A stretch of 64,000 bases of DNA from Isosphaeraceae bacterium (GTDB lineage Bacteria; Planctomycetota; Planctomycetia; Isosphaerales; Isosphaeraceae), in the NCBI GenBank assembly GCA_021324445.1, contig JAJPJC010000246.1, positions 1 to 64,000 of the forward strand. The letters run 5' to 3'. This document shows, in pieces, positions 25,660 to 30,253 of this stretch. A program made the position numbers and the translations under genes. Each line of letters begins with the position of its first letter. The stretch's first letter is position 1. Under the pieces are notes generated by a model. The model ran no database searches and was not told the DNA's origin. It saw nothing but the letters and a program-made list of their open reading frames with translations.

Positions 25660-27036
25660 ATGATCCATCCTCAACGGACGACCGGCATGACGGGCTCCTT
25701 CTGCTCCCGGCCTGGGCGAGTCCTGCTCGCCGTCGCGATCCTCACCCTCGCGCCGGCCGGAGCGGTCCGGGCGAAGAAGGCCGGGCCGGGTGCGGGCGAC
25801 GGTCCGCCACCGGCCCGGGCCAAGAGCCTGAGCGAGCGCGTGGCCGACCAATTCGTGCAGGAGTTCCAGGCTGTCTGGCCCCATCATCCGGAATGGGTAG
25901 CGATGCTCGTGGACATCCTTCAGGGGCGTCAGCTCGGCCCGGGCGATGGCTGGTTCCGGACGGCCCTGGGAAAGACGCGATACGACTGGAACGCGACGCG
26001 ACAACGACTCGATCGCGACGGCGACGGCCGGATCGCCCGCGCGGAGTTCGCCGGCTCGGATGCCGACTTCGCCCGGCTTGACCGCGACCACGACGGCTCG
26101 CTGGGCGCGCCCGACTTCGACCTCTCGGCGCACGCGCTGACCCCGTCCCCAGGCGCCATGGTCTTCTACGCCGTCGACCGCGACGGCAACGGCAAGCTGA
26201 CCCGTGAGGAGCTCGACGCCTTCTTCCGATCGGCGGATTCCGGCGGCACCGGGTTCCTCGCGCTGGCCGACCTCCAGGAGGCGCTGACGCCGCCACCGCG
26301 CGGCAAGGGCTCCTCGGGTGGCCCGCAGGGACCGAGCCGGCTCACCCTGGTCAGGGGATTGTTCCGCCAGGAGATCGGCTCACTCCAGCCCGGCCCGGCC
26401 CTGGGTGCACCCGCGCCCGACTTCACCCTCAAGACGGTCGACGGCAAGCGCGAAATCACGCTCTCGAAGCAGGTCGGCCCCAAGCCGGTCGTCCTGGTCT
26501 TCGGCAACTTCACCTGCGGCCCATTCCGCAGCCAGGCCGGTAATCTCGAGAAGCTGTACCGCCGATACCAGGACCGCGCCACGTTCCTCATGGTGTATGT
26601 CCGCGAAGCCCACCCGACCGATGGCTGGCGCATGGAGAGCAACGACCGGGTCGAGGTCTCGCTCCCTCAGCCTCAGAGCGACGCCGAGCGGATCCAGGTC
26701 GCCCAGGCGTGCAGCCGTCGACTCGAGCTGGGCATGCCCATGCTGGTCGACACCATCCACGACGTCGTCGGCGCCCGCTACAGCGGCATGCCCAGCCGCC
26801 TCTATCTCCTCGACCATCGCGGCCGGATCGCCTACAAGAGCGGACGCGGCCCGTTCGGATTCAAGCCGGCGGAGCTGGAGCATTCGCTGATCCTCCTGTT
26901 GCAGGATGAGTTTGCCGATTTGAAGGGGAAGGACACATCGGCGGCGTCCGCTCAGAAACCCCAGGGTCGGCTCTCGGCGCAATCGGATCGGCCTGCCTCG
27001 GCGGTCCGGTCGGCTCGAGCGGAGAGCCTGCCCTGA
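25660..27036 (+). CDS. EF-hand protein fused to an iodothyronine-deiodinase-like thioredoxin fold
   Basis: 458 residues with an N-terminal signal peptide (about 1-38). The middle holds EF-hand loops DRDGDGRIARAEF, DRDHDGSLGAPDF, DRDGNGKLTREEL and a weaker DSGGTGFLALADL (about residues 117-210). The C-terminal half is a redoxin: APAPDFTLKTVDG, then FGNFTCGPFRSQ with Cys286, and VYVREAHPTDGW. The last two blocks match the deiodinase family, in which the Cys position is selenocysteine in animals. It is probably an exported calcium-binding thiol oxidoreductase. Deiodination itself is not implied. Confidence 0.8.
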   Translation: MIHPQRTTGMTGSFCSRPGRVLLAVAILTLAPAGAVRAKKAGPGAGDGPPPARAKSLSERVADQFVQEFQAVWPHHPEWVAMLVDILQGRQLGPGDGWFRTALGKTRYDWNATRQRLDRDGDGRIARAEFAGSDADFARLDRDHDGSLGAPDFDLSAHALTPSPGAMVFYAVDRDGNGKLTREELDAFFRSADSGGTGFLALADLQEALTPPPRGKGSSGGPQGPSRLTLVRGLFRQEIGSLQPGPALGAPAPDFTLKTVDGKREITLSKQVGPKPVVLVFGNFTCGPFRSQAGNLEKLYRRYQDRATFLMVYVREAHPTDGWRMESNDRVEVSLPQPQSDAERIQVAQACSRRLELGMPMLVDTIHDVVGARYSGMPSRLYLLDHRGRIAYKSGRGPFGFKPAELEHSLILLLQDEFADLKGKDTSAASAQKPQGRLSAQSDRPASAVRSARAESLP

Positions 27037-27070: not shown

Positions 27071-28486
27071 GTGCTGGGCGACACGAACCAGGCGAACGAA
27101 CCCGGCCTCGCGCGCCGGCTGGGGCTGGCGACGGCCACGGCGCTGGTCGTCGGCGAAGTGATCGGGGTGGGCATCTTCCTCACCCCGGCCGAAATGGCGC
27201 GGACGCTGGGCTCACCCTTCTGGCTGCTCGCCGTCTGGCTGACGATGGGCGCCAGCGCGATCGGCGGGGCCCTCTGCTTCGGCGCGCTGGCGGCCCGGTA
27301 TCCGGAAGCTGGGGGGCTCTACGTCTACCTGAGGGAGGCTTATGGGCCGCGGGCCGCCTTCCTTTATGGCTGGCTCTCGCTGCTGGTGACCGACCCGGGC
27401 CTCACGGCGATGCTCGCGGTCGGCCTGGCCAATTACGCGGCGCACCTGGCACCGCTGTCCGTCTGGCAGATGAGAGGGGTCGCCGTCGCGGCCATCGTTG
27501 CCCTGGCCGCGGTGAACATGGTGGGCATAGCGATCGGCGCGGGGGTGCTCCGCGTGCTGGCCGCCCTGAAGCTGGGCCTGCTGGGCTTCCTCGTCGTCTG
27601 GGGCTTCGCCATGGGTCGCGGCGACTGGTCGAACCTCACGCCGTTCTGGGCGCAGCGGCCGGGTTCCGAGCCGCTGGCGAAGGCCCTGGCTGGCGGCCTG
27701 ATCATGGCGTTTGTCTCGTTCGGGGGTTGGTGGGACGCCAGCAAGATCGCGGGGGAAGTCCGGGACCCGCGGCGCACGTTGCCGCGCGCGCTGATGCTGG
27801 GCGTGTCGATCGTCACGGTGGTTTACATCGCCGTCAGCCTGGTGTTCCTCTACCTGGTGCCGGCGGAGCGGATCGCCTCGGACAAGGCGTTCGCGGCGCT
27901 GGCGGGCCAGGCCCTCTTTGGACGGACCGGGGAGGTCGTCTTCGCGTCGCTCGTCATCCTGTCGGTGGCGGGGAGCTTGGCGGCGGTGTTCCTGGCCTTC
28001 CCACGCGTGTATTACGCCATGGCGCGGGATGGGTTGTTCTTCGCCAGCATCGCGGCGGTCACCCCGCGCCGGGGCACGCCCACCCGCGCGATCGCGATCC
28101 AGGCACTCCTCGCCGCCTCCCTGGCGATGACCGGCACGTTCGAGGAGATCCTCTCCTATTTCATGGCCCCGACCCTGGTCTTCCTGGCACTGACCCTCAC
28201 CGCGGTCTTCCCGCTCCGCAGCCGCTGGCGCCGGGGGGCCGAGCCCACGGACTGGGAGATCCCGGGATATCCGATCTCTCCCTGGCTGTTCCTGGTCCCG
28301 GTCCTGGCGGTGATCGCCTTGCAGATCCTGCGCAATCCCGTGCGCGCCTCGATCGGCCTGTCCGTCGTCGCGCTGGGAGTGCCGGTCTCCGCCTGGGTGC
28401 TGGCGCACCGACACACGGCCGAGACTGCTCCGCCGCTGGATCTCGCCGATCGCGAATCCGTCTCGACGATCGGCACGAACTCATGA
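27071..28486 (+). CDS. APC family amino-acid permease
   Basis: 471 residues from GTG 27071; there is no earlier in-frame ATG with a binding site. About twelve hydrophobic helices are seen. Helix 1 has the APC glycine motif VVGEVIGVGIFLTPAEMA, and helix 6 reads MAFVSFGGWWDASKIAGEVRDPRR, the conserved APC region. The substrate (amino acid or polyamine) cannot be told. The AhpD-like gene follows after about 20 bases. Confidence 0.88.
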   Translation: MLGDTNQANEPGLARRLGLATATALVVGEVIGVGIFLTPAEMARTLGSPFWLLAVWLTMGASAIGGALCFGALAARYPEAGGLYVYLREAYGPRAAFLYGWLSLLVTDPGLTAMLAVGLANYAAHLAPLSVWQMRGVAVAAIVALAAVNMVGIAIGAGVLRVLAALKLGLLGFLVVWGFAMGRGDWSNLTPFWAQRPGSEPLAKALAGGLIMAFVSFGGWWDASKIAGEVRDPRRTLPRALMLGVSIVTVVYIAVSLVFLYLVPAERIASDKAFAALAGQALFGRTGEVVFASLVILSVAGSLAAVFLAFPRVYYAMARDGLFFASIAAVTPRRGTPTRAIAIQALLAASLAMTGTFEEILSYFMAPTLVFLALTLTAVFPLRSRWRRGAEPTDWEIPGYPISPWLFLVPVLAVIALQILRNPVRASIGLSVVALGVPVSAWVLAHRHTAETAPPLDLADRESVSTIGTNS

Positions 28487-28507: not shown

Positions 28508-29074
28508 ATGGCCTGGATTCGAACGACTCCTCTCGAAGGCGAGGCTGATGCGGTACACAAGGCGATGACCGACCAGAAAAAGCTGTATCCTCGGGAATAC
28601 GAGCAGCCGGTCCAGGAGCTCGATCACGGCGTGCCCGGGATCGTCGCCTCCCACGCGCTGATCCCCCAGGCGCTCTATCATGCGTTCGGCACCTTCGGTT
28701 CCTTGATGCAACCCGAGTTGCCGCTGGAGCGCCGCCAGCACGAGATGATCGCCTTGATGGTCTCGCACACCAACCGGTGCCATTACTGAATTGTCTCGCA
28801 CGCAGAGTTTCTGCGTCGGGTCACCCTGGATGAGGCCCTCATCCAGGCGTTGCGTGAAGATTACACGACGGCTCCGATCAGCAATCAGGACCGGGTGATG
28901 ATCGATTACGTGATCAAGCTCACCAAGGACGCCACCAAGGTCTCGCCCGCCGACCACGAGCGGCTGCGCGGCGCCGGCTTCGACGACCGCGCCATCCTCC
29001 AGATCACCCTGATCGCAGCCTGGTTCAATTACATCAACCGCGTCGCCGACGCGCTGGGCGTCGGGCGGTCATGA
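28508..29074 (+). CDS. AhpD-like/CMD peroxidase-related protein with in-frame TGA (candidate selenoprotein)
   Basis: Reading from ATG 28508 (AAGGAG upstream), one frame is open to 29074 except for a single TGA at 28787-28789. Read through, it gives 188 residues of the carboxymuconolactone decarboxylase/AhpD-like peroxidase-related family on both sides of the stop. The TGA falls at residue 94 in TNRC-HY-(TGA)-IVSH, exactly where the second Cys of the family CxxC redox motif sits. This suggests selenocysteine in a CxxU centre. A hairpin suitable for SECIS follows at once. The alternative is a TGC/TGT to TGA mutation or a base-call error; the undamaged downstream half argues against an old pseudogene. 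Confidence 0.75.
28795..28820 (+). promoter_or_regulatory. bacterial SECIS-like hairpin after the in-frame TGA
   Basis: Stem of 7 bp (ACGCAGA with TCTGCGT, loop GTT) extended by 4 bp (CTCG with CGGG, one G-U) across a single bulged C at 28799. The apical loop begins 18 bases after the TGA and its first base is G. Known bacterial SECIS elements sit just downstream of UGA, with the loop about 16-37 bases away and a G in the first two loop positions. The match is structural and by eye. Confidence 0.55.
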
Positions 29075-29351: not shown

Positions 29352-29648
29352 ATGGATGAAGTCACCTACTATCCTGAGGTTCGCTGTGAAGTCCAAGAGG
29401 TCGTGCCTCCCCTGGACCGGATCGCAGAACTCAGAGACGTCGATGGTCGTTTGCATCAGATCAATGTTCCCAGGAGCATGATCCGGCGGCATGGGTCTGA
29501 GCCTTATCTTCCCGTGGGAATCGTCAAGATCGATCGGCGCAAGCGGCTCGCGCTCATCGAGTTCCCCGTCGAGTCCGGTCAAGGCACCAACCGGGCTTGG
29601 GTGGGATTCGGCGCGCTCTGGCATGAGATCGAACCGGTGACGGCATGA
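29352..29648 (+). CDS. hypothetical protein upstream of the deaminase gene
   Basis: 98 residues from ATG 29352 with GGAGGAGC upstream. The sequence (MDEVTYYPEVRCEVQEVVPPLDRIAELRDVDGRLHQINVPRSMIRR...) looks like a small beta-rich protein; I do not recognise it. It overlaps the deaminase start by four bases (ATGA), so the two were probably translated together. Confidence 0.65.
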   Translation: MDEVTYYPEVRCEVQEVVPPLDRIAELRDVDGRLHQINVPRSMIRRHGSEPYLPVGIVKIDRRKRLALIEFPVESGQGTNRAWVGFGALWHEIEPVTA

Positions 29649-30253
29649 TCCTCAGCGACCGAGAAATCAGGGCTGCGATCGAGCAGGGCCAGATCGTGAT
29701 CCGGCCCAATCCAGACCCGCGACACTGGACATCGACAGCCATTGATTTAACCTTGGATAGTAACATCAGAAAATAGAAATTCTTAAGGAGCTTGCCGACC
29801 GGTCAACCCGGGTCGATCCGCCCGCACGCCGACGGGTTCGACATCAAGGAGCTGATTTATAGCGATAACTACACGGAGAGGGTGCTGATCGGCCCGCAGG
29901 GCTACGACCTACCACCGAAGTCCTTCATCCTAGGCTTCACGGAGCAGCGCGTCTATTTGCCCCTGCGCTCTCGGGTTGCGGCGCGAGTCGAGGGAAAGAG
30001 CAGCCTGGCACGACTGGGAATAGGCATCCATGTGACGGCGCCCACGATCCATGCCGGGTTCGGCCGGATCGGCGAGAACGAGGCAGAGGAGCAAGGCTCT
30101 CCGATCCAGCTCGAGATCTTCAATCTTGGCGATCTGACGGTGACTCTTGACCAAGGGATGGCGATCTGTCAGTTGATTCTCGAGGAGGTTCGCGAGACGC
30201 CTGACAAAGGTTATATTGGTAAATTCTCAGATCAACTTAAATTTGCATCTTGA
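29645..30253 (+). pseudogene. dCTP deaminase family gene with an in-frame TAG
   Basis: ATG 29645 starts MILSDREIRAAIEQGQIVI, the standard dCTP deaminase N-terminus, and a TAG stops it at 29774-29776. The same frame continues to 30253 with the rest of the family fold: PKSFILGFTEQRVYLP, RVEGKSSLARLGI, the HVTAPTIHAGF region and IQLEIFN, which holds the expected catalytic Glu. TGG to TAG is a one-base explanation. Apart from the stop the gene looks intact (202 codons). It is a fresh pseudogene, a sequencing error, or a gene needing amber readthrough; the first two are more likely. Confidence 0.75.

What the first reader, a model, noticed from the sequence alone, without database searches (positions are those of the whole stretch)
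28508..29074. Candidate selenoprotein: AhpD-like gene with TGA at the second position of a CxxC redox motif and a SECIS-like hairpin
One frame codes an entire AhpD-like/CMD peroxidase-related protein except for a single TGA, and that TGA falls exactly on the redox-active second Cys (C-H-Y-TGA). Immediately downstream an 11-bp hairpin with one bulge and a GTT loop starts its loop 18 bases after the TGA, which meets the published rules for bacterial SECIS elements. The downstream half shows no decay. AhpD-like families are among the groups in which bacterial selenoproteins have been reported. The linked APC permease and the deiodinase-like redox protein (with Cys) are neighbours.
Basis: partly seen in the sequence, partly recalled or inferred. 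Interest (0 to 1): 0.88.

Follow-up and report, generated by a model that had tools for sequence, protein, structure and literature searches.

The report
AhpD-like bacterial selenoprotein with SECIS
This planctomycete gene almost certainly reads one "stop" codon as the rare amino acid selenocysteine at the active site of an AhpD-type redox enzyme; genomes from several bacterial phyla share the gene, so it is a strongly supported example of an already known kind of selenoprotein.

Summary
The finding stands. Window 28508-29074 is one gene with a single internal TGA (28787-28789, codon 94) at the second position of an AhpD CxxC motif (CHYU). The genome holds tRNA-Sec (UCA), selA, selB and selD. 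All 80 orthologues kept from a named-genome scan, whose search peptides did not cover the TGA, carry TGA in this column, under titles of five phyla. The 18-base hairpin after the TGA is identical in 78 of 88 orthologues; its codons show a tenth of the synonymous variation of other conserved codons (0.13 against 1.30 bits). Where relatives have Cys, the peptide is largely kept but the hairpin is lost. The protein is TIGR01926 (AhpD-like) and keeps the proton-relay residues E79, C91, Y93, U94, H98. An APC permease lies directly upstream in 24 orthologue loci.

AhpD-like CxxU selenoproteins have been known since 2005, so this is a new member of a known kind. Less expected are the near-frozen SECIS across phyla and, in the wider family, several SECIS positions behind one fixed Sec column. 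Sec incorporation and enzyme activity are inferred, not measured.

The parts
28508..29074 (+). Selenoprotein gene, 188 aa, AhpD-like / peroxidase-related (TIGR01926; CMD domain PF02627)
28787..28789 (+). UGA codon 94, read as selenocysteine; second position of the C91-H-Y-U94 motif
   Evidence: TGA in 84/84 distinct orthologues; Cys in three orthologues of one related genus
28799..28816 (+). Bacterial SECIS hairpin: stem ACGCAGA/TCTGCGT (28800-28816), loop GTT, 17 nt between UGA and loop
   Evidence: identical in 78 of 88 orthologues (84 distinct); synonymous entropy 0.13 against 1.30 bits; geometry; the only copy in the genome
28742..28744 (+). Glu79 codon, first residue of the AhpD proton relay (E79, C91, Y93, U94, H98)
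   Evidence: invariant; spacing matches PA0269 E36/C48/Y50/C51/H55 (PMC3141380)
28496..28501 (+). Probable ribosome-binding site AAGGAG before the ATG at 28508
   Evidence: read from the sequence; inference
27071..28486 (+). APC-family amino-acid permease, ends 21 nt upstream on the same strand; probable operon partner
   Evidence: PF13520; same arrangement in 24 orthologue loci of four phyla

Best explanation
The gene encodes a SelB-dependent selenoprotein of the AhpD-like, peroxidase-related family. SelB carrying Sec-tRNA(UCA) binds the hairpin just after the UGA and places selenocysteine at residue 94. Sec94 takes the place of the second cysteine of the AhpD CxxC site: the selenol is activated by the relay Glu79-Tyr93-His98, reacts with a peroxide or disulfide, and is resolved by Cys91. 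Without selenium, translation should stop after 93 residues. Shown by sequence: the intact frame, the conserved UGA, a SECIS hairpin held by selection on synonymous sites, the complete Sec machinery, Sec/Cys exchange, and the family and active-site residues (the fold by prediction). Inferred: Sec insertion in the cell, thiol-dependent peroxidase or disulfide-reductase activity, the substrate, and cotranscription with the permease.
For: tRNA-Sec with anticodon TCA, selB 380 bits, selD 377 bits and selA 499 bits in the same assembly. In the relative G023 the TGA gene, tRNA-Sec, selB and selD all lie on one 10.4-Mb contig, which answers the worry about contamination of G000. Of 40 related genomes, 17 carry a TGA orthologue or homologue and all 17 have selB over its cut-off; none of the 16 without selB do (Fisher p = 7e-6). 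TGA stands at this column in 80 of 80 named loci; of 18 orthologues in the family, 15 have TGA and 3 Cys. The SECIS codons are almost frozen and drift once Sec becomes Cys, for example TTT to TTC. The three Cys forms nest inside a well-supported Sec clade. TIGR01926 scores 115 bits over a cut-off of 82. The predicted fold matches 2pfx, 3c1l and 2prr. Residues E79, C91, Y93, U94 and H98 match the relay of PA0269 exactly, and that of Mtb AhpD in spacing.
Against: There are no protein, ribosome-profiling or read data. The assembly has 8.5% contamination and 567 contigs, and the Sec genes lie on other contigs than the window. No Rfam family matches the hairpin, although Rfam's coverage of bacterial SECIS elements is thin (own knowledge). 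Whether this subfamily acts as a peroxidase, a disulfide reductase or something else was not tested.
Confidence: 0.97

Rival explanations
1. Pseudogene or sequencing error: the TGA is a true stop or a miscall in a Cys gene.
For: A fragmented assembly with 8.5% contamination; a single premature stop is the usual signature.
Against: The same TGA recurs in 84 distinct orthologues from independent assemblies, including a named strain, Aquisphaera insulae JC669 (L114). The downstream half is more constrained than the upstream half. Codons next to the TGA are frozen at synonymous sites.
Confidence: 0.01
2. UGA is decoded as another residue without SelB (for example by a Cys-inserting suppressor tRNA or a changed code).
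For: Such tRNAs exist in some bacteria (own knowledge). The anticodons of all 105 tRNA hits in this genome were not listed.
Against: This gene itself ends in TGA. A dedicated tRNA-Sec, SelA, SelB and SelD are present, TGA-bearing homologues occur only in genomes with selB, and a SECIS sits at the required place.
Confidence: 0.01
3. The 93-residue product ending at the UGA is the working protein and the rest is read only occasionally, so the UGA is mainly a selenium-dependent switch.
For: Selenium-limited cells are expected to terminate at Sec UGAs (general knowledge).
Against: The 93-residue product lacks the second active-site residue, H98 and half the fold; purifying selection is stronger after the UGA.
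Confidence: 0.01

Closest known systems
AhpD-like selenoproteins, CxxU (COG2128 / TIGR01926; Sargasso Sea 'AhpD-like protein', GOS 'AhpD-like 1')
   Same: Same family label, same CxxU motif with Sec at the second position, SECIS just downstream (PMC1088965, PMC2398784; TIGR01926 CxxU entry in review PMC13188914).
   Different: The founding members come from marine metagenomes. The passages read here do not describe this orthologue group of Planctomycetota, Acidobacteriota and Gemmatimonadota, its near-invariant SECIS or its permease linkage. Whether the review's listed representative falls in this group was not tested.
NCBIfam NF041238 alkylhydroperoxidase-related (seleno)protein (AhpD_rel_CFYUT)
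   Same: Related AhpD-like (seleno)protein with Sec at the same motif position.
   Different: The window protein scores 59.5 bits, far below the 175-bit cut-off; the model is longer (357 positions).
NCBIfam NF053654 YciW-related (seleno)protein
   Same: Related (seleno)protein by sequence over residues 76-185.
   Different: 36 bits against a cut-off of 310.
Mycobacterium tuberculosis AhpD and Pseudomonas aeruginosa PA0269
   Same: Proton-relay residues E, C, (H or Y), C, H with identical spacing (PMC3141380); PA0269 structures match the predicted fold.
   Different: Both are Cys enzymes; Mtb AhpD has a different chain arrangement (1gu9 TM about 0.5).

Membership tests
Bacterial selenoprotein (SelB/SECIS-dependent) | In-frame UGA with intact coding on both sides | tested here: met
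Bacterial selenoprotein (SelB/SECIS-dependent) | Sec machinery in the genome (tRNA-Sec, SelA, SelB, SelD) | tested here: met
[quoted passage not shown]
   loop GTT, 7-bp stem, 17 nt; MFE -16.2 for the 45 nt after the UGA
Bacterial selenoprotein (SelB/SECIS-dependent) | Cys/Sec exchange at the UGA column in homologues | tested here: met
Bacterial selenoprotein (SelB/SECIS-dependent) | Selenium or Sec detected in the protein | not testable with these tools
   needs mass spectrometry or 75Se labelling
TIGR01926 peroxidase-related enzyme (AhpD-like) | Score over the curated cut-off | tested here: met
   115.3 bits against 81.8; all 30 aligned orthologues match at E <= 0.001
TIGR01926 peroxidase-related enzyme (AhpD-like) | AhpD relay residues E-x11-C-x-[HY]-C/U-x3-H | tested here: met
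   E79, C91, Y93, U94 and H98 invariant; spacing as
TIGR01926 peroxidase-related enzyme (AhpD-like) | Peroxidase activity | not testable with these tools
   assay needed
NF041238 AhpD-related (seleno)protein | Score over the equivalog cut-off | tested here: not met
   59.5 against 175 bits

The most novel reading that the evidence does not exclude
Within one family the Sec column stays fixed while the SECIS sits at several different places and in different stems (loop starting after 17, 19, 24, 25 or 28-29 nt), yet inside the window's orthologue group the SECIS is almost frozen in sequence across several phyla. This could mean that Sec was gained, or the SECIS rebuilt, several times independently, and that the SECIS of this group is held by sequence-specific SelB recognition or spread by horizontal transfer with its gene, the APC permease being part of the same selenium-linked redox unit.
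Probability: 0.3. Interest if true: 0.55.

Novelty: new member of a known kind. Interest (0 to 1): 0.42.

Why it matters
Standard annotation would cut this protein at 93 residues or call it a pseudogene, and no NCBIfam model named as a selenoprotein reaches its cut-off on it, so a widespread redox enzyme of Planctomycetota and Acidobacteriota is probably often misannotated. The set (TGA in all 80 named loci, Cys exchange within one bacterial family, SECIS decay after exchange, several SECIS positions behind one Sec column) is a good natural experiment on how SECIS elements arise, move and decay. The conserved permease partner gives a first lead to the substrate.

Tried and rejected
1) An apparent TAA inside the G076 homologue, which could have been Sec on UAA, lies upstream of the start; the protein is CxxC. 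2) Two TGAs in G004 and G022: the second is the ordinary terminal stop. 3) Rfam on the hairpin gave only chance matches. 5) The hairpin alone as evidence: rejected as weak, since stems of at least 7 bp follow 13 of 145 readable TGAs in the window. 6) Minus-strand loci from the genome search are not turned; my first translation of them was wrong and was redone. 7) A second copy of the same SECIS in the genome: none within 3 mismatches.

Full report
OBSERVATION. The frame 28508-29074 on the + strand codes 188 residues, open except for TGA at 28787-28789, codon 94, in T-N-R-C-H-Y-U-I-V-S-H. The hairpin ACGCAGA-GTT-TCTGCGT follows, with 17 bases between UGA and loop. Taken alone the hairpin is not rare (13 of 145 readable TGAs in the window have a stem of at least 7 bp by the same rule); what is rare is its combination with a CxxU site and its conservation.

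MACHINERY. The window's genome (10.8 Mb, 567 contigs, 8.5% contamination) holds a tRNA-Sec with anticodon TCA (76.7 bits), selB (380 bits), selD (377 bits) and selA (499 bits). They lie on other contigs, so contamination was considered. In the relative G023, a 3-contig genome, the TGA orthologue, tRNA-Sec, selB and selD are all on one chromosome-sized contig. Across 40 related genomes, all 17 that carry a TGA orthologue or homologue have selB over its cut-off, and none of the 16 genomes without selB has one (p = 7e-6; the genomes are related, so the events are not all independent). The own genome also shows a formate dehydrogenase-like frame with one TGA (G000:C249:47423-48160), possibly a second selenoprotein.

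CONSERVATION. Within the family (Isosphaeraceae, inferred from record titles of close relatives) 18 orthologues were found: 15 with TGA and 3 with Cys, the three Cys forms all in one genus. A scan of named genomes with two peptides that do not touch the TGA or the hairpin kept the best 80 loci; all 80 have TGA there (79 by motif, L112 read by eye), under titles of Planctomycetota, Acidobacteriota, Gemmatimonadota, Latescibacterota and KSB1. MAG titles may misplace some records. In 84 distinct sequences the codons of the hairpin (98-103) carry 0.13 bits of synonymous entropy against 1.30 for 85 other conserved codons: Phe101 is TTT in 84 of 84 while Phe over these genes is more often TTC, and Arg103 is CGT in 81. 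The changes seen keep pairing by G-U wobble except three CGC at the base of the stem. In the Cys orthologues L016, L066 and L068 the peptide is largely kept but the hairpin codons drift, and on the tree these Cys forms sit inside a well-supported Sec clade (FastTree, weak at deep forks). Selection after the TGA is stronger than before it (mean pN/pS 0.26 against 0.43).

PROTEIN. The product is TIGR01926, peroxidase-related (115 bits, cut-off 82), with a CMD domain. Solved relatives by sequence are 2pfx, 3c1l, 6k40, 2oyo and 2prr, and the predicted fold (mean pLDDT 80) matches the same entries (TM 0.72-0.77). Mtb AhpD uses Glu118, Cys130, His132, Cys133, His137 and PA0269 Glu36, Cys48, Tyr50, Cys51, His55 (PMC3141380). 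The window has Glu79, Cys91, Tyr93, Sec94, His98 with identical spacing, all invariant in 30 orthologues. Sec therefore replaces the second CxxC cysteine.

CONTEXT. The APC permease gene ends 21 nt upstream. A homologue lies directly upstream on the same strand in 24 orthologue loci, of Planctomycetota, Acidobacteriota, Gemmatimonadota and Latescibacterota (26 loci hold a match; in one, of KSB1, it lies about 1 kb away and in one it lies downstream). An acyl-CoA synthetase-like gene is common downstream in Acidobacteriota. The deiodinase-like gene two genes upstream has Cys here, but homologues in the fetched loci L132 and L129 have Sec.

THE WIDER FAMILY. In 392 genomes of the phylum most of the hits to this family carry one TGA. 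Of 175 homologous stretches read, 148 have TGA at the column, 24 Cys, and 3 Gly or Leu; the set was gathered from related loci and some genomes occur twice. The hairpin after TGA sits at several registers: loop after 17 nt (102 sequences), 25 (24), 19 (9), 24 (5) and 28-29 (3). The Sec column is fixed while the SECIS is not, which suggests SECIS rebuilding or repeated Sec gain; this was not resolved.

KNOWN KIND. CxxU AhpD-like selenoproteins (COG2128, later TIGR01926) were reported from the Sargasso Sea and GOS data (PMC1088965, PMC2398784) and are listed in a 2026 review (PMC13188914). The bSECIS rules used are from that review. This is a new member, or orthologue group, of that kind.

MECHANISM. 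Step by step: SelB with Sec-tRNA bound at the hairpin (inferred from machinery and conserved SECIS); Sec at residue 94 (inferred, strongly); selenol activated by the E79/Y93/H98 relay and resolved by C91 (inferred from the PA0269 and Mtb AhpD mechanism, PMC3141380); electron donor, substrate and the role of the permease unknown.

NOT SHOWN. Sec in the protein, enzyme activity, substrate, operon transcription, and the share of transfer against inheritance.

Noticed in passing
window 25660-27036 (+): Deiodinase-like redox protein (PF00837, 103 bits) with EF-hands, Cys in FGNFTCGPF; homologues in L132 and L129 have Sec at that place, so this neighbour also exchanges Sec and Cys.
   Followed up: partly
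L192 (G104:C173:6099-6440): AhpD-like paralogue with Gly (GGG) in the Sec column while the SECIS-type hairpin CCTGCAGTTGCAGG is still there: looks like a recent loss of Sec.
   Followed up: partly
L185 (G127:C155:92887-93931): Tandem pair of AhpD-like genes, one with UGA and one with Leu (TTG) in the Sec column.
   Followed up: partly
L075 (G268:C3:308220-308786): Orthologue outside the family with Cys in the Sec column but Thr in place of the first Cys of the motif.
   Followed up: no
G000:C249:47423-48160: Formate dehydrogenase-like frame with one TGA in the window's own genome, possibly a second selenoprotein.
   Followed up: no
L081-L102, L193-L202 (various Planctomycetota): The same Sec column is served by SECIS hairpins at 17, 19, 24, 25 and 28-29 nt from the UGA, with unrelated stems.
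   Followed up: partly
window 29646-30253 (+): dCTP deaminase-like ORF (29792-30253, PF22769) that matches only the later part of the profile (from position 52); the missing first part may lie in another frame just upstream, so the gene may be frameshifted or broken.
   Followed up: no
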